From IMG/VR virus record IMGVR_UViG_3300002835_008705, positions 1 to 20,061 of that record: 20,061 nt of DNA; one strand, 5' to 3'. This document shows, piece by piece, positions 2-18,983 of this stretch. The DNA is from a virus. The number at the start of each line of letters is the position of its first letter. Position 1 is the first letter of the stretch. Position numbers and translations under genes: made by a program. Under the pieces are notes generated by a model. It made no database searches and was not told the origin of the DNA. It worked only from the letters and a program-made list of their open reading frames with translations.

Positions 2-64
2 TCGCAAACCAAGACACACTTTCTTTCGCGCGAAGGCCGACGGTTTGCGGGGCGGCGATTGTAA
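2..64 (+). CDS. Possible 3' end of an upstream gene (partial)
   Basis: A frame is open from base 2 to a TAA at 62-64 and gives about 20 residues ending in a basic tail (SREGRRFAGRRL). In this kind of gene order the large terminase subunit normally precedes the gpW and portal genes, so this could be its C-terminus. No family motif is visible in so short a piece. Frames 1 and 3 are also open for some distance, so the choice of frame is weak. Confidence 0.25.
   Translation, partial: SQTKTHFLSREGRRFAGRRL
3..49. repeat. Nested inverted repeat before the first promoter
   Basis: CGCAAACC (3-10) pairs with GGTTTGCG (42-49). Inside it, the perfect palindrome TTCGCGCGAA (25-34) can form a second hairpin. 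No U-tract follows directly, so this is not a standard intrinsic terminator. It lies just upstream of the promoter at 59-102 and could act as a terminator for the previous gene or as a protein-binding site. Confidence 0.35.
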
Positions 65-108
65 CCTTGCGGGGGCGGGTTTTTTTGCCGGTGTGGTAGC
101 GTGGTCCC
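59..108 (+). promoter_or_regulatory. Candidate phage promoter P1, leaderless
   Basis: TTGTAAC (59-65), 7 bases, GGGCGGG (73-79), 17 bases beginning with a T-run, then an extended -10 TGGTAGCGT (94-102). The same elements with exactly the same spacings occur before the capsid gene at 6413-6456. The ATG at 109 is 7 bases from the end of the -10, where the transcription start would fall, and no Shine-Dalgarno sequence is present. The predicted mRNA is therefore leaderless. The TGnTAnnnT -10 is a known extended -10 pattern. The G-rich -35 is not a sigma-70 consensus. Confidence 0.6.
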
Positions 109-723
109 ATGACCACCATTCTGCGTTGCGCTTGCGTTTTCGTCGTTTTTGCCTTGGGCGGATGCTCCGTTCCTCGGCAATACCGCGCCATGCCCGCACC
201 GGCTGCCGAGGTGCCAGCGGTTAATCCGCCCTATGCGATTCGCCAAACGAACTGGCTGAGTCCGCAGCGCGAGGGCTCATGCGTCCATGCGTCGCTCTCG
301 TCGTGTCTGCACTGGCAAAACCAGTTTGACCTGGCCAAGCAATGGCGATCGCAGTACAGCGGCGGGGAGTATGGCGACCGGCTGCGGCAGCGACTCGATG
401 CGGCTGGTATTAAGTACGCCTACACCGAGAAGGCCAATCTGCAATTGCTCGACGACGCGCACAGCTCGCGACGCGGTGCCTTGCTTTGGTGGAAGCCTAA
501 CCACTGCTGCACGTTCTGCGGGTGGGCTAAAGATCAATCTGGAACAGTGTACGCCGCTATCCTCGACAACAACCGCACGAATCAATACGAGTTTGTCGAG
601 CGGTCGGAATTTCATCGGCGATGGGCTGGGTTTGGCGGTTTCGCGCTGACTCCTTTGTTCGACCCGCCGTCGCCACCCATTTGGAAATCGTTTGCACCTG
701 TTGAGGAATCGTGGCCATGGTAG
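109..723 (+). CDS. Lipoprotein with papain/C39-like cysteine peptidase fold
   Basis: The 204-residue protein starts with a hydrophobic signal and a lipobox LGGC, with the lipidated Cys at residue 19, so it should be a lipoprotein outside the cytoplasmic membrane. After a Pro/Ala linker come a Cys at the start of a helix (GSCVHASLSSC, Cys58), a His in NHCCTFCGW (His132) and ILDNN (Asp153/Asn154). This Cys-His-Asp/Asn order and spacing resembles papain-like and C39-type peptidases. No database match could be made, so the fold is an inference. It is the first gene after promoter P1, and its stop overlaps the next gene's ATG (717-723). A phage structural operon does not need such an enzyme, so it may be a cargo gene acting on the host envelope, or a virion protein. 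The many extra cysteines in the His region are unusual. Confidence 0.6.
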   Translation: MTTILRCACVFVVFALGGCSVPRQYRAMPAPAAEVPAVNPPYAIRQTNWLSPQREGSCVHASLSSCLHWQNQFDLAKQWRSQYSGGEYGDRLRQRLDAAGIKYAYTEKANLQLLDDAHSSRRGALLWWKPNHCCTFCGWAKDQSGTVYAAILDNNRTNQYEFVERSEFHRRWAGFGGFALTPLFDPPSPPIWKSFAPVEESWPW

Positions 724-1625
724 GCAACAATTGTGACTCGCAAGAACACAAAGTCAAAGTCGTTTTGTCTTTCGGCCTGGTGGTTGTTGCTTTTCTTTGT
801 GCTGTGTTCGTGGTCGTTGGTCAGCGAATGGCTCCGCGCGTGGAGAGAGCCCTCGGGATTGAAGGTGTCAAATCCGCCGACATCCCAGCCGGAGGAATCA
901 ACTACGACGCATTGAAAAATGCGCCGCTGAATCAAATGCCGGTTAATGAACAAGCGGCGAGAGAAATCAAAAAACAACAGATTGAGATCGGCAAATCACC
1001 ACCGCAGCCAACACCCAAAACGCCATCAGGTCTCGAGCCAACACCAACCGCAAAACGGTACAGCATCACGCTGTTTGCCGGTGTCGATCCGAAATCGACG
1101 CAGGTTCTCGACTGGTTCAATCGCGAGTCGGTACTGCAGGAAATAAAAGCGAATTGCAACTTCCACGTCTACACCAAGGACAACGCACTATACCGCGAAC
1201 GGTATAGTTCCATCGTTTCTCCTGACGATTTCCCGGCGATTGTGTTTTGCGATCCTGAGGGCGGGCATGTGTACGTCGCGGGCAAGTCGCAAATGCCGAC
1301 GTCGGCCCGGGCGTTGTTCGACGCAATGCGATCCGCCTATAAGACCCAGCAACAGGTCCGCGAGCAATCGCAAGACTCATCGATCGTGCTGCAATCTGGG
1401 CCGGACAATTGCCCCGATGGATCATGCAGGCCAAACGATCGCGTCCCGTTTATCAATCCCGATCGCAAGCCACTGTTTCCGGCACTGCGACCCGATGAAC
1501 CGCCATCGATCGAATCGATCTTGTATTGGCTCTGGAATCCTGGCGAGGCGGTTCTCGCGTTGCTGTGTGCGGCCGTGCTGTGTGCGATCGCTCTCGTTGT
1601 CACGATCAAGGTGTGGAAATCATGA
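717..1625 (+). CDS. Membrane protein with thioredoxin-like domain, no CXXC
   Basis: ATG 717 overlaps the previous stop (ATGGTAG) and is preferred to the in-frame GTG at 711. This gives 302 residues. An N-terminal membrane segment lies at about 13-35, followed by a Pro-rich linker at about 90-112. A thioredoxin-like domain spans about 113-208: beta strand YSITLFAG, helix, then PDDFPAIVF, which looks like the cis-Pro motif before a strand and GG hairpin. The usual CXXC is missing, since LFAGVDPKS sits in its place. A second membrane segment is at about 277-298, and CPDGSC lies between the domain and that anchor. This would be a non-redox thioredoxin fold held at both ends. The neighbours are a lipoprotein and two small membrane proteins, suggesting a joint envelope function. 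The role is unknown. Confidence 0.65.
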   Translation: MVGNNCDSQEHKVKVVLSFGLVVVAFLCAVFVVVGQRMAPRVERALGIEGVKSADIPAGGINYDALKNAPLNQMPVNEQAAREIKKQQIEIGKSPPQPTPKTPSGLEPTPTAKRYSITLFAGVDPKSTQVLDWFNRESVLQEIKANCNFHVYTKDNALYRERYSSIVSPDDFPAIVFCDPEGGHVYVAGKSQMPTSARALFDAMRSAYKTQQQVREQSQDSSIVLQSGPDNCPDGSCRPNDRVPFINPDRKPLFPALRPDEPPSIESILYWLWNPGEAVLALLCAAVLCAIALVVTIKVWKS

Positions 1626-1864
1626 TGTGGGCCGTTTTGCTAATGCTCCTGTGTGTCGTTTTTTTGGTGGTGATTTGGTGGAAGCCAAACAAGTCGAACG
1701 GTCCTGCCGTGATTCAATCGGCGATGGATCGGATTGTCTCGCGACCTAGCACGCCGCTTGAGCAAGAGATCGAGATCATCGCGTCCGCACTTCGGGAACG
1801 CGACGCTGCCAAGCGAAAAGCCGAAGCTCTTGCACGCCTCAAGGATCTTCTCGCAGAGGAATAA
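1622..1864 (+). CDS. Small membrane-anchored protein
   Basis: ATG 1622 overlaps the previous TGA (ATGA, 1622-1625), which favours this start over an earlier in-frame one at 1526. The protein has 80 residues. It opens with a single hydrophobic segment (residues 1-20, LLMLLCVVFLVVIWW), followed by a cytoplasmic-looking, highly charged helix (EQEIEIIASALRERD) that could form a coiled coil. Size and layout resemble small phage membrane proteins such as spanin or accessory components. No signature allows a choice, so it remains hypothetical. Tight coupling suggests it is made together with the thioredoxin-like protein. Confidence 0.6.
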   Translation: MMWAVLLMLLCVVFLVVIWWKPNKSNGPAVIQSAMDRIVSRPSTPLEQEIEIIASALRERDAAKRKAEALARLKDLLAEE

Positions 1865-1868
1865 ACCA

Positions 1869-2069
1869 ATGGCCGAAATCACCGACCAGCAAATTGCCGA
1901 CGCCGCCGCTCAACCGCAGTCCATGTCGGTCGATGGGGTCAACGTCGCTCAGCGATCGCTCAAGGAATTGATGGACGCGCAAGACAATCTCTCGCAGAAA
2001 AACGCCGAGAAGCCACGGCGTGGGCTGCTGTTTTCGAAGCTGATCCCCGGATCTGCCCGAGGCCAGTGA
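1869..2069 (+). CDS. gpW-like head-tail joining protein
   Basis: 66 residues starting at ATG 1869, 4 bases after the preceding stop. The pattern ITDQQIADAAAQPQSMSVDG, then VAQRSLKELMDAQDNL, fits small phage proteins found directly before lambda-type portals (gpW-like: two helices around a short hairpin, about 60-70 residues). Members complete the head and join it to the tail at the portal vertex. The C-terminus is basic (RRGLLFSKLIPGSARGQ). The earlier in-frame start at 1734 lies inside the preceding gene and is not needed. The call rests on size, pattern and position beside the portal gene. An alternative is an uncharacterised packaging accessory protein. Confidence 0.6.
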   Translation: MAEITDQQIADAAAQPQSMSVDGVNVAQRSLKELMDAQDNLSQKNAEKPRRGLLFSKLIPGSARGQ

Positions 2070-2257
2070 TGACCTGGTGGGCCACGCTCGTCGCTGCCGT
2101 ATTGCAATGGCTTAGCAAATCGACCGGCCGGCAAATTGCCATTGGTGCGGCGTTGTTTCTGATCCTGCTGGGGATCCTGCTTGGGTCCACAGCCACGGTC
2201 GTCTTTGGTGGTGCTCTGTTGTTTTTCTTGTTGAGTCGCCCAAATGCCAATTCTTGA
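2069..2257 (+). CDS. Small membrane protein
   Basis: ATG 2069 overlaps the preceding TGA (TGATG), and an in-frame GTG at 2066 is the alternative. The 62 residues form an amphipathic start (MTWWATLVAAVLQWLSK) and a strongly hydrophobic hairpin at about 23-56 with Gly residues, so one or two membrane segments. The gene runs 14 bases into the portal gene, showing translational coupling. Phages often carry holins of this size, but a holin between gpW and portal would be out of place. No endolysin is seen nearby. Function unknown. Confidence 0.55.
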   Translation: MTWWATLVAAVLQWLSKSTGRQIAIGAALFLILLGILLGSTATVVFGGALLFFLLSRPNANS

Positions 2258-4568
2258 CCAGTACGGCCAAACGATCGACACCCAATCGATCGCGATTGCG
2301 CAGCGCATCGCTAAGCAACGCGCCCGCCGCGATTCGCTCAGCGCCTCATACGACGCCGCGGCCGAGACTAGGGAGTCGGCCAAGCACTGGCGGTGGGCTG
2401 ATCATCACTCTGCCGCTGCCGCCAATTCGTCCAGCGTCCGAAAAACCCTCCGCCAGAGATCACGCTACGAGATCCTCGAATCGAATTCGTTCGCCAAGGG
2501 TATCGCGCTTACGTTGTCCAACGACACTATCAGCACCGGTCCATCGTTGCAAGTGATGCTCCCGGATCCCGCAGCGTCGCGAGCCATCGAGCAGCGGTGG
2601 CGCAAGTGGTCCAAAGACGTCAAGCTCGCTGACAAACTGCGGACCGCACGCCTGGCCAAACTGGTCGATGGCGAGACGGTCATCCTCAAGGGCAACAATC
2701 GCCGATCCCGCAACCCCGTGCAGCTCGACGTTCGCGTCATCGAAGCGGATATGCTCGCGACGCCCAACTACATGGACGGGTTCCCCAACCAAGTCGATGG
2801 GATCATCTTCGATGAATGGGGCCAGCCGATCGAGTACCACGTCCTGAAAGGTCACCCCGGCGACGTGTGGCCGTGGAAGGCCTGGGATTACGAGACTATT
2901 GACCCGGACGATCTGATCCACCTGTTCCGCAGCGAGCGACCCGGCCAACAGCGAGGCATCCCCGAGATGACTCCAGCGTTGCCGCTGTTCGCTCAACTTC
3001 GCCGCTACACCCTCGCCGTCATCGCGGCCGCGGAGAACGCCGCCGATTTCTCTGCGGTCCTGAAAACACAATCCAGCGCGTTCGATTCGGCAACCGATGG
3101 GATCGACGACATCGATCCATTCGATGGTGTCCAGATCGATCGCGGCATGATGGTCAGCTTGCCACGCGGTTGGGATCTGACGCAATTCAAACCGGAACAA
3201 CCGACCACGACCTACGAAGGATTCCGCAACGCGATCCTCAACGAGATCGCTCGCTGCGTCCACATGCCATCCAACAAGGCCCTCGCGGATTCGTCCAAAT
3301 ACAACTACAGCTCGGGCCGACTAGATCACCAAACGTATTACGAAGCGATCTCGGTCGAAAGATCGCAATGGGAAATCGAATGCCTCGACCGCATTTTCGA
3401 ATGGTGGCTCGATGAAGCGCTGATGCTCACCGGGTATCTGCCGGCCCTCGAGCCGATGGACGAGATCCCGCACGTGTGGCGTTGGCCACCGAACCGCGAC
3501 GTGAACCCCAGCGAGGTCGCCGACGCCAACATCCGCTTGATCGATGCCGGACTCAAGACGCGTCAACAATATCTCATCGAGCAAAACATCGACCCAGAGT
3601 CGCACGCCCAGCAACTCGACGAGGAGGGGTGGGTCAATCCCAACGCACCTGAGCCGACCGAGGCAACGATCGCCACCGATGCCGATCCGTTGGCACCGGT
3701 CGACGACGTTGCGAAATCCGCGCTCAATGGTGCCCAGGTCGCCAGCCTGGTGCAGATCGTCAACGCGATCGCCATGGGCACGATGCCACCCGACACGGCC
3801 AAGGCGGTCATCGCGTCCGCGTTCCCGACCATGGACTCGGCTATAATCGATTCAATTGTTGATCCGATCAAGCCCGGCAGCGTGACACCTGAAGGCACCC
3901 CCGCACCTGCCGCAGCCGAGGCACCAATCGGGCCAGATGGCGATCCGGTGCCAAGTGCCAAACCACCGCCTGGCGAGTTTGCCAACCTGTCGCGCCGGCA
4001 GCTCAAGCGCCAGATGGCCGCGATCGATGACGGGCTCAACAAAGTCAAGTCCGGTGAGTGGACCGTCCAACGCGCTCGCGTGTTCTATGGGTCGATCGGA
4101 CTGACTCAGCAGACGATCGATAATTTGCTCGACGAGTTTGGCGAAAACGAGCCACCATGCGAAGATTGTGGGGATGCCGGCGCCGCCCAAGCCATGGCAT
4201 CGGATCGCACGCTCGAGGCCAATTGCGGCACCGGCAAAGACGGATTTGAGGCAGGCAACGATTGTGGCAAAGGTGGTGGCGGCGGTGGTGAATCGTCTTC
4301 GGACAAATCCAGTGGATCAAGTGGATCTGATTCTGGATCCAGCACAGGAGGAAAGCACAGCGTGAAACTACCACCCAAAAAATCGAAACTCAAAATCGAC
4401 ACCGCGTCGCAGGCTCTCGACCAAATGGGGTATAAGCTCGATTTCAAATCCTCAAAGACCGATTTGAAAACAAAGAAGACGAGCTACAGCGTGACCGACC
4501 GCAACGGCAACACGTCGCGAATGGACACCGACCAGATCAAGGAATTGGTCTACCAGGGCGCCAGCTAG
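2244..4568 (+). CDS. Portal protein, lambda gpB family, with C-terminal extension
   Basis: The 774-residue protein forms the dodecameric channel through which DNA enters the head. Residues 1 to about 450 follow the lambda-type portal: an N-terminal RSRYEILESNSFAKG segment, VDGETVI, VRVIEADML, DGIIFDEWGQPIEYHV, a DDLIHLFRSERPGQQRGIP segment near the clip and stem, and NEIARCVHMPSNKAL, then YNYSSGRLDH. Lambda gpB has 533 residues, so about 240 are extra here. They comprise an Ala/Pro-rich region, an ELSRRQLKRQ-type helical stretch, GTGKDGFEAGNDCGKGGG followed by a Gly/Ser linker (about 658-705), and a small terminal domain (about 712-774). The GNxC-G motif with a Gly linker is also seen in phage minor head (MuF-type) proteins. 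No separate MuF gene occurs here, so the extension may replace part of it. The gene overlaps its upstream neighbour by 14 bases. Confidence 0.88.
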   Translation: MPILDQYGQTIDTQSIAIAQRIAKQRARRDSLSASYDAAAETRESAKHWRWADHHSAAAANSSSVRKTLRQRSRYEILESNSFAKGIALTLSNDTISTGPSLQVMLPDPAASRAIEQRWRKWSKDVKLADKLRTARLAKLVDGETVILKGNNRRSRNPVQLDVRVIEADMLATPNYMDGFPNQVDGIIFDEWGQPIEYHVLKGHPGDVWPWKAWDYETIDPDDLIHLFRSERPGQQRGIPEMTPALPLFAQLRRYTLAVIAAAENAADFSAVLKTQSSAFDSATDGIDDIDPFDGVQIDRGMMVSLPRGWDLTQFKPEQPTTTYEGFRNAILNEIARCVHMPSNKALADSSKYNYSSGRLDHQTYYEAISVERSQWEIECLDRIFEWWLDEALMLTGYLPALEPMDEIPHVWRWPPNRDVNPSEVADANIRLIDAGLKTRQQYLIEQNIDPESHAQQLDEEGWVNPNAPEPTEATIATDADPLAPVDDVAKSALNGAQVASLVQIVNAIAMGTMPPDTAKAVIASAFPTMDSAIIDSIVDPIKPGSVTPEGTPAPAAAEAPIGPDGDPVPSAKPPPGEFANLSRRQLKRQMAAIDDGLNKVKSGEWTVQRARVFYGSIGLTQQTIDNLLDEFGENEPPCEDCGDAGAAQAMASDRTLEANCGTGKDGFEAGNDCGKGGGGGGESSSDKSSGSSGSDSGSSTGGKHSVKLPPKKSKLKIDTASQALDQMGYKLDFKSSKTDLKTKKTSYSVTDRNGNTSRMDTDQIKELVYQGAS

Positions 4569-4571
4569 CCG

Positions 4572-5636
4572 ATGTCATCTCTGACGCGTGAGACCAAGTC
4601 ACGCACCGGGTGGCGGCTGCGAGCGTACACGGCCACCGGTCGGAAATCGATTTGGTTGGGTGACATCGCCGAGGCCGACGCAGTCGCTGTCCAGCGTCAC
4701 GTTGACGAGATACTCGCCGCACAAACCGCCGATCTCCCGCTGCCGCGTCAGACCGTGCGTTGGCTCGACCAAATCACGCCCGCTCTACGGCGCAAACTCT
4801 CCGCGATCCTCGGCGCGACCCACACCGTTGGGACCGCCATCGATGCCTACGTGCATGAGACGCGTGAGCGGTTGGCACTCGCCACATGGAACGATCGGCA
4901 ACGGTCGCTCGAACTGCTTCGTGAGACACTCGACCAGCGACCCATCGATCGCGTGGCCGTCGAGGATGTCACCGAGTGCCATCAATCGCTGACCGTAGGC
5001 GAATCCACGCGAGGCAAGATCGCCGCAGGATGGCGCGCGTTTTTCCATTGGTGCATCGATCGCAAGCTCATTGCCGACAATCCCGCTCGGGAGCTATCGA
5101 CCAAAATCAACGTCCGTGAGAAGCATTTTGTCCCGGTCGGTGTTGCGGCCAAGCTGATGGAGCTCGCCACGCCCTCGATGGCGGTCGCGATCGCCATGAG
5201 CCGATGGGGTGGAATCCGCGTCCCGTCCGAGCTGCGATCGCTCACCTGGGACGCGATCGACTGGGATCGAAAACGGATCGCTATCTGCGACCACAAACGG
5301 AACACCACGCGCACCATTCCGCTATTCCCCGAGATCGCCGCGGCCCTCGCGAGTCATCCTCGCGATGTGCCGCTATGCGGTGATCTGCTTGAGGGCAGCG
5401 ATTCCGGTATGGCCTGTCGGTTGCTCAATCTGATCGCGATCGCCGGCGTGACGCCATGGCCTGCGCCGTGGCACTCCATGCGAGCCACCCGCGAGACGGA
5501 ATTGATTGAGCGGTATGGACTCGCCACCGCGTCGCAGTGGATCGGCAATAGTGCCGCCGTCGCAATGCGATCGTATGCCATGGTCACCGACGAGCACTGG
5601 CGGACTGCCACTGCCGATACCCCGCCGAATCCGTGA
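4572..5636 (+). CDS. Tyrosine recombinase (phage-type integrase)
   Basis: The 354-residue protein would cut and rejoin DNA at attachment sites to integrate or excise the element. It has an N-terminal arm-binding-like part, a core-binding helical domain (about 85-190) and a catalytic domain (about 195-345). Catalytic residues visible are Arg216 in GGIRVPSELRSL, Lys242 in CDHKRNTTRTIPL, His301 and Arg304 in HSMRATRE, and the nucleophile Tyr335 in AAVAMRSYAMVTD. The usual GHS box reads GNS (326), as is common in planctomycete integrases. The set is complete, so the enzyme is probably active. The gene starts 3 bases after the portal stop, so it is co-transcribed with head genes. That is unusual, because integrases normally sit in their own module. 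Its last 53 bases overlap the convergent gene at 5584-5799. Confidence 0.88.
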   Translation: MSSLTRETKSRTGWRLRAYTATGRKSIWLGDIAEADAVAVQRHVDEILAAQTADLPLPRQTVRWLDQITPALRRKLSAILGATHTVGTAIDAYVHETRERLALATWNDRQRSLELLRETLDQRPIDRVAVEDVTECHQSLTVGESTRGKIAAGWRAFFHWCIDRKLIADNPARELSTKINVREKHFVPVGVAAKLMELATPSMAVAIAMSRWGGIRVPSELRSLTWDAIDWDRKRIAICDHKRNTTRTIPLFPEIAAALASHPRDVPLCGDLLEGSDSGMACRLLNLIAIAGVTPWPAPWHSMRATRETELIERYGLATASQWIGNSAAVAMRSYAMVTDEHWRTATADTPPNP

Positions 5637-5799
5637 TTGCCGCCTCGACCGCAGCCACCTTGCTCGGCACGGTGTCGAGGTACTCTACGATTGGCGGTGC
5701 GAGCTTGAACGTGACAGGTCGCTTTGCGTTGGCCATCTTCTTACGGCCAGCGCCCTCGCGAGCGCCGCCGTGTGTGGGTGTTTTTTTCTTGCGCGGCAT
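5584..5799 (-). CDS. Small basic DNA-binding protein, ribbon-helix-helix-like
   Basis: 71 residues. The N-terminus is very basic with GGAREGAGRKK, a motif found at the start of many small phage and mobile-element DNA-binding proteins. It is followed by a strand (RPVTFKL), a helix (PPIVEYLDTV) and a second helix (SKVAAVEAAITDSAGY), the order of a ribbon-helix-helix domain. It starts 4 bases after the stop of the gene at 5804-5992 and is the last gene of a three-gene minus-strand operon. Its 3' end overlaps the integrase gene in the convergent direction. It is a good candidate for a regulator of the integrase or of the divergent promoters near 6300-6460. The binding role is inferred. Confidence 0.7.
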   Translation of the reverse strand: MPRKKKTPTHGGAREGAGRKKMANAKRPVTFKLAPPIVEYLDTVPSKVAAVEAAITDSAGYRQWQSASARR

Positions 5800-5803
5800 T
5801 AAA

Positions 5804-5992
5804 TCACCATCCGCCTTCGTTCCACTCGGCGTAGGTCATATTGGCCGGTTCGTCCGTTTCTACTACGTCAAACTTTGCGTCTGCAAAAATTTTCTTTGCG
5901 GTTTGCATTGCTTCGGTTGCCTCTTTTTTGGTGGCAAAAACCACGCCATCGAGACCTGTGTTTTCTGCTGCTGTGATTACTTCGTAGCCCAT
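5804..5992 (-). CDS. Small hypothetical protein
   Basis: 62 residues starting at the ATG at 5992, with GGGGAG as ribosome binding site about 9 bases upstream, better than most genes here. The sequence alternates strand and helix (YEVITAAENTGLDGVVFATKKEATEAMQTAKKIF) and ends acidic (ETDEPANMTYAEWNEGGW). The pattern 'strand - FATKKEA - long helix' is common in small phage proteins of unknown role. There are no membrane segments and no cysteines. It is the middle gene of the minus-strand operon downstream of the TATAAT promoter at 6298-6325, next to the DNA-binding gene. Function not recognised. Confidence 0.6.
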   Translation of the reverse strand: MGYEVITAAENTGLDGVVFATKKEATEAMQTAKKIFADAKFDVVETDEPANMTYAEWNEGGW

Positions 5993-6026
5993 TTATCTAT
6001 CTCCCCGTTTTCAAAAACTGCCGGAG

Positions 6027-6051
6027 CCCACCCGGCGGAAGGGCGGGTGGG
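6027..6051. other. GC-rich hairpin between two minus-strand genes
   Basis: CCCACCCG (6027-6034) and CGGGTGGG (6044-6051) form an 8-base-pair stem with a 9-base loop. It lies just after the stop of the gene ending at 6053. In the minus direction a run of five T follows only about 9 bases later, too far for a good intrinsic terminator. It may stabilise the upstream mRNA end or reduce read-through. Confidence 0.4.
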
Positions 6052-6052
6052 A

Positions 6053-6244
6053 CTAGCTGATTTTTCCATCTGCTCGCAATGTTCGCAGAGCCAGCTTTTT
6101 TGCGGCATGCTCTCGATCGTTTCGGCTGACCCCGAGCGAGTCGGCGAGAGCAGTCCATTGCGTCAGGCTCAAGTTCGCAACCTTTCGCAGTTGCGATTGA
6201 AACTCTGCGTTGATCAGGTTTAGCGTTTCGATGCTGCTCATCAT
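6053..6244 (-). CDS. Small helical protein, first gene of minus-strand operon
   Basis: 63 residues, or 62 from the second of two adjacent ATGs (6244, 6241). AAAGGGTGAG lies upstream and its AAGG spaces better to the second ATG. The protein is mostly helical: SSIETLNLINAEFQSQLRKV, then LSLTQWTALADSLGVSRN and a basic helix (REHAAKKLALRTLR). The piece 'LTQWTALADSLGVSRN' looks like a helix-turn-helix core, but the protein is too short and plain to be certain. It is first behind the TATAAT promoter, which carries an inverted repeat over its -35 element. An autorepressor in this position would be typical. A repressor or excisionase-like role is speculation. Confidence 0.55.
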   Translation of the reverse strand: MMSSIETLNLINAEFQSQLRKVANLSLTQWTALADSLGVSRNDREHAAKKLALRTLRADGKIS

Positions 6245-6297
6245 CTCACCCTTTGCGTTCGTTTCCCGCGTCGCACTGTGCGTCGCTTGTACACGTG

Positions 6298-6325
6298 ATT
6301 ATATCGGCTGCTTGATTCCCGGCAA
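6298..6325 (-). promoter_or_regulatory. Sigma-70-type promoter for the minus-strand operon
   Basis: Read on the minus strand, TTGCCG (6320-6325) is followed by 16 bases and a perfect TATAAT (6298-6303). The start point would be near 6291, leaving a leader of about 45-50 bases before the gene at 6244. This is the only consensus -10 recognised in the window. It differs clearly from the TAGnGT type before the structural operons. Confidence 0.65.
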
Positions 6326-6338
6326 TACCTAAATCAAG
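6311..6338. promoter_or_regulatory. Operator-like inverted repeat over the -35 box
   Basis: CTTGATT (6311-6317) and AATCAAG (6332-6338) are perfect inverted 7-base arms, 14 bases apart. The centre-to-centre distance is about two helical turns (21 bases), as expected for a dimeric repressor. The repeat encloses the -35 element of the minus-strand promoter (6320-6325), so binding would block that promoter. No protein can be assigned to it. The small proteins of the same operon are candidates. Confidence 0.5.
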
Positions 6339-6362
6339 AAAAATAGGGGAAGATTTTTTGGG

Positions 6363-6392
6363 GACCATTTTCCTGACGTCAGGAAAATGGTC
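6363..6392. repeat. Perfect 30-base palindrome
   Basis: The half GACCATTTTCCTGAC is followed at once by its exact reverse complement, centred on TGACGTCA at 6377/6378, with no loop. It sits 21 bases upstream of the TTGTAAC box of promoter P2 and 38 bases from the minus-strand -35. There is no U-tract downstream on either strand, so a terminator is unlikely. An operator for a dimeric protein or a recombination site fits better. No second copy was noticed in the window. Confidence 0.75.
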
Positions 6393-6412
6393 GGGTTGGC
6401 GGGGAACATCAT

Positions 6413-6463
6413 TTGTAACACCCGTTGGGCGGGTTTTTGCGGGGTCGTGGTAGGGTCGATTGC
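6413..6463 (+). promoter_or_regulatory. Candidate phage promoter P2, leaderless, before capsid gene
   Basis: TTGTAAC (6413-6419), 7 bases, GGGCGGG (6427-6433), 17 bases beginning TTTTT, then extended -10 TGGTAGGGT (6448-6456). All three elements and both gaps equal those of P1 at 59-102. ATG 6464 lies 8 bases after the -10, so the mRNA should start at or 1-2 bases before the start codon. No Shine-Dalgarno is seen. A short ACCCG/CGGGT stem followed by Ts overlaps the element, but P1 lacks it, so the shared signal reads as a promoter and not as a terminator. Confidence 0.6.
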
Positions 6464-8800
6464 ATGACCAAATCGACCACACGGGCTCGCCTTGAGCAAG
6501 CCCGGCGACGACGCGAGAAGCGCCTCGCCCGAAATCGCGATCGGCTCCACGCCGCCGAGGATCGTGGGCTCGACCTGCGAGCCACCGGTGAGCCTCTGTC
6601 GTTGTGTGCCATGGATGGGTCGGACGCTCCAACGCTGCCGCGTTTCAACGCGATTGCGTACACGGGTGGCCCGATGTACCCCAAGCTCGCCATCGCATGG
6701 AACGGACCGGTGTATGTCGATCTGTCAGGTCTGGACGCGGTGGCTACGAATCCCATCCATCGCGATCACGACGAAGGGAAGCCAATCGGTCATTCCGTGT
6801 CCGTAGACAACGACGGCACGCGATTGGTTTGCTCCGGGGTTTTCAGCGTCAACTCAATCGATACCTCCGAGATCGTGGAGTCGGCCAAGCAGGGGTTTCC
6901 TTGGCGTCCCAGTGTGGGCGTCAAGATCGTTTCCTACACCACGCTCCAAGCCGGTCAAACGGCATCGATCAACGGACGCATCGTCGAAGGCCCAGCACTC
7001 TGGGTCAAGCGATCGGTCCTCAAAGAAATCTCCCTCGTCACCATCCCCGGCGACGATTCCGCCACAATTTCAATCGCCGCGAGCCAAGCCACGCCCATGG
7101 TCCCAGACTTCGCCAACTACTGCCAATCCCTCGGCGTCGATCCCGCCGCCGCCTCTCCCGAACTGCTGCAGGCTCTGCAGACGGCTTACGCCGAGTCCGT
7201 CGAGCCCAGCGATTCCCCCGCACCTCCTCCGCCCTCACCGTCTGGCATGGATGCCGGCGGCGGGGGTCCCGCCCCAATGCCGATGCAATCGGCCCAACCG
7301 TCGCCCGAAGTCCCGCAGGACAAGGAAAAGCCCGCTATGGCCAACGCCCACTCGCCCGTCGATCTCGCTGCCGCCGAAGTCTCCACCTACCGAGCTGCAC
7401 TCGCTGCCGAGGTGGAGCGATCCAACCAGGTCCGTGACCTGTGCGCCAAATTCGGTAGCCCACAAATCAGCATTGACGGCAAGAACGTCGACCTCGCCGC
7501 GCATGCGATCGCACACGGCTGGGACCGTGACAAGACCGAACTCGAGGCCCGACGTCATCTGGATCTCGAAGCGACCCGCGAATCACGCCCTCGCGGGCCC
7601 GCCATCCACTCTCACTCGCGCGATGAGCGGCAGTCCCTTGACGTGCTACAAGCCGGGATGCTGCTCCGCGCGGGGTGCAATCTTGACTCGAAGCAATTCG
7701 AAAATCGCTGGGTCAAGGCCAAGCTGCCCAAGTGGTTGCAAGCCGGGATCAACGATCCTATCCGGCAACGCACGATGGACCACGGCCACGCTGCCTCGGA
7801 CCTGTCCCTGGTCGACGCCTGCCGACTCGGCCTGCAAGCTCGCGGGCATGATGTGCCCGCCGGACGCATGGACATGATCCAAGCCGCCTTCTCGACCGGT
7901 TCCGCTGCCGCATTGTTCGGCGCGACCATCGGCGCGAAGATGCTGGAAAGCTACGCCGAGGTCGACGATTTCTCTGCAGGTTGGTGCAGCGAAGACGAAA
8001 ACCCAGACCTCGAGCAACACAACCGCAACCGGACCCAAGCGGCCCAGTCGCTGGTCTATCATCCGGTCGGCGGCGAAGCGGCCCACACCGGTCGCGTGGT
8101 CACTTCGGAAAAGGCTCAGGTCTACCGATTCTCTCGCCAGATGAAAATCGACGAGGCCGACGTTCTCGGCGACAACTTCTCAAAGTTCAAAGACACCCCG
8201 CGCGACTTCGGTTTGGCAGCGGGTCGCGTTCGACCGGACATGGTCGCGATGGTCCTCTTGAGCAATCCCAACTTGCTCGCCACCGGTCGCGCCCTGTTCA
8301 ACACGACCGACGGCAACATGATCGCGAGCGGAAAAGCACTTGCACGTGCCACGCTATCCGAGTTGATCGCCGCGATCCGCAAGCGAAAGGATGGCGACGC
8401 CAACCTCGATCTCCCCGTCACTCACTTGATCGTGCCGCCGGATCTGCTTGATACCGCAGTGCAGTTGTGCTACTCGGTCGTGATCTCCAACGATAGCGGC
8501 GCGGGTGAAATGAACCCGCTTAAGCAGTACGGGATCACACCCGTTAGCGAGCCGCGATTGTCGACCGGCATGAACCACCCGGTCACCGGCGCCGCGCTCG
8601 CGGGCTCGACGACCATGTACTACGGTCTCTCCGACAAGTCACGCACCATCGAAGTCACCTACCTGCAAGGTGCAGGCCGTACCCCGGTCGTTCGGTCCGA
8701 GACCCTCACCGGTGGCGAGTTCGGTCTCGCAATCGACGTTCGCCACTATATCGGAGCCACCGCTCTCGATTGGCGCGGATTCCATCGCTTCAACGCGTAA
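6464..8800 (+). CDS. Prohead protease-major capsid protein fusion
   Basis: 778 residues from ATG 6464. That start sits correctly behind promoter P2; an in-frame TTG at 6425 lies inside the promoter and is rejected. Residues about 55-205 are a capsid maturation protease of the HK97/U35 type: IHRDHDEGKPIGH (His99 likely catalytic), GFPWRPSVGVK (Ser150 likely nucleophile) and LKEISLVTIPGDDSA, a hallmark near the domain end. Residues about 210-400 are Pro/Gly-rich then helical (AEVSTYRAALAAEVERSNQV), like a scaffold or delta domain. Residues about 400-778 are a capsid protein resembling the Mu gpT type (LLSNPNLLATGRALFNT, VTHLIVPPDL, SRTIEVTYLQG). The protease would free itself and the scaffold during maturation. 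Such fusions are known but uncommon. The N-terminus is strikingly arginine-rich (residues 7-27). Confidence 0.85.
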   Translation: MTKSTTRARLEQARRRREKRLARNRDRLHAAEDRGLDLRATGEPLSLCAMDGSDAPTLPRFNAIAYTGGPMYPKLAIAWNGPVYVDLSGLDAVATNPIHRDHDEGKPIGHSVSVDNDGTRLVCSGVFSVNSIDTSEIVESAKQGFPWRPSVGVKIVSYTTLQAGQTASINGRIVEGPALWVKRSVLKEISLVTIPGDDSATISIAASQATPMVPDFANYCQSLGVDPAAASPELLQALQTAYAESVEPSDSPAPPPPSPSGMDAGGGGPAPMPMQSAQPSPEVPQDKEKPAMANAHSPVDLAAAEVSTYRAALAAEVERSNQVRDLCAKFGSPQISIDGKNVDLAAHAIAHGWDRDKTELEARRHLDLEATRESRPRGPAIHSHSRDERQSLDVLQAGMLLRAGCNLDSKQFENRWVKAKLPKWLQAGINDPIRQRTMDHGHAASDLSLVDACRLGLQARGHDVPAGRMDMIQAAFSTGSAAALFGATIGAKMLESYAEVDDFSAGWCSEDENPDLEQHNRNRTQAAQSLVYHPVGGEAAHTGRVVTSEKAQVYRFSRQMKIDEADVLGDNFSKFKDTPRDFGLAAGRVRPDMVAMVLLSNPNLLATGRALFNTTDGNMIASGKALARATLSELIAAIRKRKDGDANLDLPVTHLIVPPDLLDTAVQLCYSVVISNDSGAGEMNPLKQYGITPVSEPRLSTGMNHPVTGAALAGSTTMYYGLSDKSRTIEVTYLQGAGRTPVVRSETLTGGEFGLAIDVRHYIGATALDWRGFHRFNA

Positions 8801-18081: not shown

Positions 18082-18243
18082 ATGACTATCGAATTTTTGA
18101 TGCGCGTACTCACGAATCGGCTTACACGATTACGAGACGCCAAGATTCAAGCGGAAGCTAACGGAGACCTGGAAAGAATCGTCGAGCTGGACACCGAAAT
18201 CACTGAAACCGAGGCAACGCTCGCCGCACTGCGGAGCCTGTGA
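18082..18243 (+). CDS. Small coiled-coil-like protein
   Basis: 53 residues from ATG 18082, 6 bases after the large gene, ending in a TGA (18241-18243) that overlaps the next ATG. It is almost all helix: MTIEFLMRVLTNRLTRLRDA, then a charged stretch ERIVELDTEITETEATLAAL. Heptad spacing of Leu/Ile suggests a coiled coil of two segments. Because it is bracketed by overlapping coding frames with good spacing on both sides, it is likely real in spite of its size. The role may be a chaperone or linker for the neighbouring fibre proteins. Confidence 0.6.
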   Translation: MTIEFLMRVLTNRLTRLRDAKIQAEANGDLERIVELDTEITETEATLAALRSL

Positions 18244-18983
18244 TGAATTTGTTTTCGTTCCTGTTTGGTGGTTTGCTCGGAGGTGGTGGCAGCGGAAACG
18301 ACGCCGTCACACCGAGCAACCTTGCCGCTGGGACGCCTGTCCTCGGAACGACCACCGTCACACTCGCCGGGACGCTCAGCCCCGAGAATCTCACCGCTGG
18401 GACGCCTGTCCTCGGAACGACCAGCCTCACGCAAAATCACTCGCTCGCACCGTCTGGCCTCGCAGCGGGAACGCCTGTCGTCGGCACGTCCACACTGACG
18501 CAGACTCACGCCGTCGCACCGAGCAACCTCGCAGCGGGAACGCCGGTCCTCGGCACGTCCGCACTGACGCAAACCCACGCGGTCGCACCGAGCAACCTAG
18601 CCGCCGGAACGCCGGTCCTCGAGACGCTGACCGTCTCGCTTGCTGGCACGATCGCACCAACGAACTTGGCAGCGGGAACGCCGGTTGTCGGCACGTCGGC
18701 ACTGACGCAAGTTCACTCGCTCGCGCTGACCAACCTGGCCGCTGGCGCTCCTGCCATCGGCACGTCCACGCTAACGCAAACGCATCCGTTCGAACCGGTC
18801 GCAATTGTCAGCGGTGCGCCGGCGATCGGTGCGACCACCCTCACCCAAAATCACGGCTTGGCCCCGGTCGGACTCGCGACCGGCTCGCCGCAACTCGGAT
18901 CTCTGGATCTCGTTGTGATCGGGGATGTGTCCGTCGGTGCGTTTTCTCGATCGCCTGCCATCGTTGGCTCTGGAGTTTATTGA
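18243..18983 (+). CDS. Repeat protein with nine 23-residue units
   Basis: 246 residues from ATG 18243 (overlapping the preceding TGA); a GTG at 18240 is an alternative start. After a short hydrophobic N-terminus with a Gly-rich piece (FGGLLGGGGSG), nine units of 23 residues follow, with the pattern 'LAPSNLAAGTPVLGTSTLTQTHA'-like, of which the stretch NLAAGTPVLGT is most constant. Units six and later diverge, and the last is followed by a non-repeat tail (VVIGDVSVGAFSRSPAIVGS). Similar AGTPxLGT repeats occur in phage tail-region proteins of several bacterial groups. They should fold as a regular beta stack. Function on the particle is unknown. Confidence 0.68.
   Translation: MNLFSFLFGGLLGGGGSGNDAVTPSNLAAGTPVLGTTTVTLAGTLSPENLTAGTPVLGTTSLTQNHSLAPSGLAAGTPVVGTSTLTQTHAVAPSNLAAGTPVLGTSALTQTHAVAPSNLAAGTPVLETLTVSLAGTIAPTNLAAGTPVVGTSALTQVHSLALTNLAAGAPAIGTSTLTQTHPFEPVAIVSGAPAIGATTLTQNHGLAPVGLATGSPQLGSLDLVVIGDVSVGAFSRSPAIVGSGVY
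18309..18902 (+). repeat. 69-base tandem repeat array (about nine units)
   Basis: Units of 69 bases code for 23 residues each. Units 3 to 6 are closest to each other, with the 20-base stretch GCAGCGGGAACGCCGGTCCT and near variants repeated. Later units are more diverged. Being in frame and tandem, the array could change length by recombination or slippage without breaking the gene. Confidence 0.8.

What the first reader, a model, noticed from the sequence alone, without database searches (positions are those of the whole stretch)
59..6463. Same promoter architecture twice, each giving a leaderless mRNA
Seen: TTGTAAC, 7 bases, GGGCGGG, 17 bases, then TGGTAGCGT at 94-102 and TGGTAGGGT at 6448-6456. 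All spacings are identical although the filler differs, which would be rare by chance. Both ATGs begin 7-8 bases from the -10, at the expected transcription start, and neither has a ribosome binding site. Known: TGnTAnnnT is an extended -10. Inferred: a phage-specific late promoter pair driving two structural operons as leaderless transcripts, perhaps with an alternative sigma factor or activator binding TTGTAAC.
Basis: partly seen in the sequence, partly recalled or inferred. Interest (0 to 1): 0.68.

Follow-up and report, generated by a model that had tools for sequence, protein, structure and literature searches.

The report
Paired leaderless late promoters in phage
A family of uncultured phages carries exactly two copies of one promoter design, one in front of each block of particle-building genes and placed so that the message starts at or one base before the start codon; it is conserved across dozens of relatives, so it is very likely a real two-site late-gene switch, although the protein that works it is not identified.

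Summary
TTGTAAC-N7-GGGCGGG-N14-TGGTAGnGT occurs at 59-102 and 6413-6456 and nowhere else in the window (the quoted 17 bases run to TAGnGT; to TGGTAG it is 14). The window is a whole 20,061-base IMG/VR phage record, and about 75 capsid-family loci could be fetched.

They confirm a two-site promoter but redraw it. The conserved core is TTGTAAC-N28-TGnTAnnnT. Of 50 TTGTAAC in 20 family contigs, 30 have the -10 exactly 28 bp downstream; all other gaps from 5 to 60 give 1. Records holding both operons have two sites each. GGGCGGG itself is not conserved. In two divergent genomes both sites carry the same variant box (CTGGAAY; CTGTAAG) in the same register, which points to one shared trans-acting factor.

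Leaderlessness is well supported: the capsid ATG lies 6-7 nt after the -10 in all 32 distinct promoters. It is lost at site 1 in one clade (41-45 nt leader). Both first genes lack a Shine-Dalgarno, although 12 of 26 window genes have one.

Best reading: activator-dependent late promoters without a -35, working like Mu C or P2 Ogr promoters. Activator and host are unproven; a small winged-helix-like early protein is one of the best-correlated candidates.

The parts
59..65 (+). Site 1 upstream box TTGTAAC (about -50 to -44 if the ATG is +1)
   Evidence: Direct reading; invariant in TTGTAAC-type relatives at gap 28 from the -10
73..86 (+). Site 1 second half-element GGGCGGG (73-79) and T-tract (80-86)
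   Evidence: Direct reading; GGGCGGG not conserved at site 1 in G003, G008, G009
94..102 (+). Site 1 extended -10 TGGTAGCGT
   Evidence: TA and final T of the hexamer invariant across 51 distinct promoters
109..723 (+). Gene 1, predicted lipoprotein with a possible papain-like Cys/His pattern; ATG 6 nt after the -10, no SD; first gene of operon 1
   Evidence: no Pfam, PHROG or NCBIfam match
2244..4568 (+). Portal protein, operon 1
   Evidence: PF05136 E=1.6e-57
4572..5636 (+). Tyrosine integrase B, last gene of operon 1
   Evidence: phrog_1 E=2e-21
6413..6419 (+). Site 2 upstream box TTGTAAC
   Evidence: conserved where the DNA just upstream is unrelated
6427..6438 (+). Site 2 second half-element GGGCGGG (6427-6433) and T-tract (6434-6438)
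   Evidence: Direct reading; varies in relatives, the CG and T-tract stay
6448..6456 (+). Site 2 extended -10 TGGTAGGGT
6464..8800 (+). Prohead protease/major capsid fusion; ATG 7 nt after the -10, no SD; first gene of operon 2
   Evidence: PF25209 and phrog_4523, NF045541
8819..20061 (+). Operon 2: head-tail and tail genes, running off the record; ends with a terminase in longer relatives
   Evidence: GpA_nuclease in G003

Best explanation
The two elements are the two late promoters of a temperate tailed-phage family. Each has a sigma-70-type extended -10 (TGnTAnnnT) and no -35; the -35 region is taken up by an upstream box (TTGTAAC at about -50 plus a weaker CG-centred half at about -33, often with a T-tract in the spacer) that most likely binds a phage-encoded activator. 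When the activator is made, it switches on both sites together: site 1 for gene 1-portal-integrase and site 2 for capsid-tail-terminase. In this phage transcription starts at, or one base before, the ATG, so both first genes are translated from leaderless mRNA. Shown here by sequence: conservation, exact spacing, two sites per genome, box changes shared by both sites of a genome, ATG position. Inferred: promoter activity, start sites, the activator, late timing, leaderless translation.
For: 30 of 50 TTGTAAC in 20 family contigs have .G.TA...T exactly 28 bp downstream, against 1 at all other gaps from 5 to 60. Records holding both operons have two sites. The block is conserved where flanking DNA is unrelated. 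The box changes together at both sites in G006 and G020, each P about 4.5e-5. The capsid ATG is 6-7 nt after the -10 in 32 of 32 distinct promoters. SD-like 4-mers in 12 of 26 window genes against 9.7% background, but none at the two first genes. Mu late promoters have C sites at or above weak -35s and a T stretch in two spacers (PMC4461284); P2 drives several late operons with one activator (PMC3931495).
Against: No transcript data. No activator identified; no early gene tested is both present in all TTGTAAC genomes and clearly a transcription factor. The leader is 41-45 nt at site 1 in clade B, so leaderlessness is not essential there. One relative (L022) has TTG instead of ATG after the site-2 -10. 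In clade B the TTGTAA of site 2 is also the Leu-stop end of the integrase, so that part of its conservation is confounded with coding, though not in the window clade or at site 1.
Confidence: 0.66

Rival explanations
1. Ordinary host-type extended -10 promoters whose upstream box is bound by a host transcription factor or the RNA polymerase alpha subunit; no phage activator is involved.
For: A good extended -10 can work without a -35 (established knowledge). Host unknown, so its promoters could not be compared. A minus-strand gene in the window has an ordinary TTGCCG-16-TATAAT match.
Against: The box differs between phage lineages in step at both sites, easier to explain with a phage-encoded reader. 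An exact scan of 84,980 bacterial and archaeal species genomes for the longer TTGTAAC-N7-GGGCGGG-N14-TGGTAG pattern gave no match.
Confidence: 0.2
2. A phage-encoded alternative sigma factor reads the box as its -35 element.
For: G020 encodes two ECF-like sigma proteins side by side.
Against: 31 bp between the box and the -10 hexamer is far beyond the usual 16-19; the -10 keeps the sigma-70 positions T1 A2 T6; no relative of the larger G020 sigma (7996-8697) was found in the other family contigs.
Confidence: 0.07
3. The repeated block is a recombination or attachment site, or an inert remnant of a duplicated integrase-plus-flank cassette.
For: In most relatives each copy lies just downstream of a tyrosine integrase gene.
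Against: G020 keeps site 2 although its integrase-B gene lies elsewhere. Integrases A and B split very deeply, so an inert remnant would have decayed. Conservation falls on the -10 positions and the ATG distance.
Confidence: 0.04

Closest known systems
Bacteriophage Mu late promoters (lys, I, P, mom) activated by C protein
   Same: A few late operons under one activator; site at or above the -35, poor -35, T-stretch in the spacer of two of them (PMC4461284)
   Different: Different box, two sites instead of four, leaderless start codons, no C homologue recognised
P2-type late promoters activated by the zinc-finger protein Ogr
   Same: Upstream activator box shared by several late operons (PMC3931495)
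   Different: P2 box TGT-N12-ACA is absent at both sites; no Ogr match. A 104-aa Cys-rich early protein (zn104) exists but lacks the CX2CX22CX4C pattern
Predicted leaderless phage promoters, e.g. mycobacteriophage Corndog PL1/PR2
   Same: Promoter placed so that +1 is the first base of the start codon (PMC4351075)
   Different: Those are SigA-like promoters with a -35, not a pair with a shared activator-type box

Membership tests
Sigma-70 extended -10 promoter | TGnTAnnnT with T1, A2 and T6 of the hexamer | tested here: met
   Exact in the window. TA and final T invariant in 51 distinct promoters, by construction of the pattern in that tally, but also seen in capsid-anchored alignments made without it; the TG is relaxed in clade B site 1 (CG), G006 and G020 site 1
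Sigma-70 extended -10 promoter | Transcription start about 7 nt after the hexamer | not testable with these tools
   Needs 5'-end mapping; ATG at 6-7 nt fits
P2 Ogr-dependent late promoter | TGT-N12-ACA box | tested here: not met
   TGT at 61 and 6415 is followed after 12 nt by GCG at both sites (read)
Mu C-dependent late promoter | C-type activator gene and its binding site | tested here: inconclusive
   No C-like gene named among the early proteins scanned, but not every early ORF was scanned
ECF/alternative sigma promoter | -35 and -10 motifs about 16-19 bp apart | tested here: not met
   Box to -10 hexamer is 31 bp in every promoter
Leaderless mRNA | Start codon at or within a base or two of +1, no SD | tested here: inconclusive
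   Geometry and SD absence fit; the 5' end itself was not measured

The most novel reading that the evidence does not exclude
An undescribed phage late-gene activator (perhaps the winged-helix-like or a Cys-rich early protein) has co-evolved with a two-site bipartite box that replaces the -35 and drives leaderless translation of the capsid mRNA; within the family the first operon has switched between leaderless and leadered forms behind an otherwise unchanged promoter.
Probability: 0.4. Interest if true: 0.6.

Novelty: new variant of a known kind. Interest (0 to 1): 0.47.

Why it matters
No record in the phage collection matches these phages at DNA level, so their gene control is unknown. A fixed two-site promoter whose box changes in step gives a testable late-gene switch and a way to find its activator. 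A leaderless capsid message, and a sister clade that has gained or kept a leader at the same operon-1 promoter, make a natural comparison of leaderless and leadered initiation.

Tried and rejected
N17 before TGGTAG: no match, a wording slip. GGGCGGG as an invariant box: rejected. A collection-wide scan for TTGTAAC-N28-TGnTAnnnT-N6-ATG gave 89 contigs, roughly what chance would give for 15 fixed bases in a collection of that size (my estimate); most look unrelated and are not used as evidence. Recent duplication of an integrase-promoter cassette: integrases A and B are each monophyletic with a very deep split, so any duplication predates the family. Intrinsic-terminator reading of ACCCGTTGGGCGGGTTTTT at site 2: the stem is mismatched in relatives and absent at site 1. 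The larger G020 sigma as the family-wide factor: not found in the others.

Full report
OBSERVATION. TTGTAAC-N7-GGGCGGG-N14-TGGTAGnGT occurs at 59-102 and 6413-6456, with two matches in the window and none in 100 shuffles. The quoted 17 bases are right only to TAGnGT; the literal N17-TGGTAG pattern is absent. The window is a complete IMG/VR record of 20,061 bases. A second contig (L004, in G002) is identical over 11 kb and extends 5.9 kb further upstream.

SURROUNDINGS. Site 1 precedes a predicted lipoprotein gene (109-723), small membrane-protein genes, the portal (2244-4568) and a tyrosine integrase (4572-5636). Site 2 precedes a protease-capsid fusion (6464-8800) and the head-tail genes. In longer relatives the second operon runs on to a terminase with a GpA-type nuclease domain, and most early genes lie on the other strand.

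RELATIVES. Searches with capsid and portal gave about 75 capsid-family loci. Upstream of the capsid, the block from TTGTAAC to the ATG is conserved even where the DNA directly 5' of it is unrelated, a phylogenetic footprint. The conserved core is TTGTAAC-N28-(T)GnTAnnnT. GGGCGGG varies (GGACGGT, GAGCGGT, GAATCGA; GGTCTAG at site 1 of some), leaving a CG at a nearly fixed place and usually a T-tract. Records holding both operons have exactly two sites, at gap 28. In 20 contigs, 30 of 50 TTGTAAC have the -10 pattern at gap 28, and all other gaps from 5 to 60 together give one. Some of these contigs are close relatives, so the 30 are not independent; 51 distinct promoter sequences were collected in all.

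CONCORDANT CHANGE. Two divergent genomes do not have TTGTAAC at the sites. G006 has CTGGAAY at both (ATCTGGAAYCRACYTAGA shared); G020 has CTGTAAG-N7-GGATCG at both. Both keep the 28-bp gap and a TAnnnT hexamer. The shared 27-nt stretches have P about 4.5e-5 against random pairs from the same genome, and neither box-plus-hexamer combination occurs elsewhere in its genome. The two sites of a genome change together, which is what one trans-acting reader would cause. Gene conversion between the sites is a weaker alternative: the intervening filler differs.

LEADERLESSNESS. In 32 distinct site-2 promoters the ATG is 6 or 7 nt after the -10. At site 1, 8 of 19 are like that (window clade, G006, G020), but 11 (clade B) have a 41-45 nt leader behind the same promoter. 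Twelve of 26 window genes have an SD-like 4-mer against 9.7% of random positions; the two promoter-proximal genes have none. So missing SDs are not simply the rule in this phage, and leaderless transcripts are the natural reading. One relative (L022) has TTG in place of the ATG.

MECHANISM. The box covers about -50 to -30, there is no -35, and the -10 is extended. Activator-dependent phage late promoters look like this: at Mu late promoters the C site is upstream of or over the -35, the elements are non-consensus, and two spacers share a T-stretch (PMC4461284); P2 Ogr drives four late operons from a shared box (PMC3931495). The elements here work like those but are not members of either set: the P2 box is absent and no homologous activator was found. 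A sigma-factor reading is disfavoured by the 31-bp distance, although G020 encodes two ECF-like sigmas.

CANDIDATE ACTIVATORS. Early genes were compared by presence. A 113-121 aa protein (wh; G002 1697-2035 minus strand) is in all TTGTAAC genomes with an early region except G008, and absent from G006 and G020. Its predicted fold is a helix-turn-helix with a wing (mean pLDDT 66, low) and its best structural matches are mostly winged-helix regulators, none with E below 0.001. Another, p83, has a similar spread (alignment) but is poorly conserved. Two Cys-rich proteins (zn104; znHTHzn) are present in parts of the family. This is correlation only.

ORIGIN OF SITE 2. In an outgroup with 47-49% identical capsids no such promoter precedes the capsid, and in most of those loci the portal-to-capsid interval is too short for an integrase. 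Site 2 therefore looks like an addition in this subgroup, perhaps restoring expression after an integrase entered the operon; G020 keeps site 2 although its integrase-B relative lies elsewhere. The scenario is inference.

LIMITS. PMC5397173 notes few SD genes and a leaderless/RPS1-type signal in the one planctomycete it analysed, which would suit such a host but does not show it.

Noticed in passing
6363-6392: Perfect 15+15 nt palindrome (GACCATTTTCCTGAC/GTCAGGAAAATGGTC) just upstream of site 2. Relative G001 has matching changes in both arms (TTTTGCCGAC/GTCGGCAAAA). No T-run follows it on either strand, so it looks more like an operator than a terminator.
   Followed up: partly
5584-6325: Cassette of three small minus-strand genes between integrase and site 2, missing in most relatives, with a TTGCCG-16-TATAAT promoter match at 6325-6298; probably a moron expressed in the lysogen.
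   Followed up: partly
4572-5636 and G002:4570-5718: Most genomes carry two tyrosine integrases that are only distantly related, each lying upstream of one of the two late promoters. Why a phage keeps two is unexplained.
   Followed up: partly
L204:7996-9472: Genome G020 has two divergent ECF-like sigma factor genes next to each other, unusual for a phage.
   Followed up: partly
109-723: Gene 1 has a lipobox and conserved GSC...H...LDNN pattern like a papain-fold cysteine peptidase, but no family match.
   Followed up: no
L199 region, clade B site 1: Some clade B leaders start with GGTCC...GGACC, a possible 5'-terminal hairpin, not kept in G005 or G015.
   Followed up: no
15-27 (ACACACTTTCTTT): ACACACTTTCTTT is kept upstream of site 1 in the window clade and clade B, although its distance to TTGTAAC differs; possibly part of an attachment site or a terminator of integrase A.
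   Followed up: no
18243-18983: Protein built of repeated NLAAGTPVLGT-like units, probably a repetitive structural protein.
   Followed up: no
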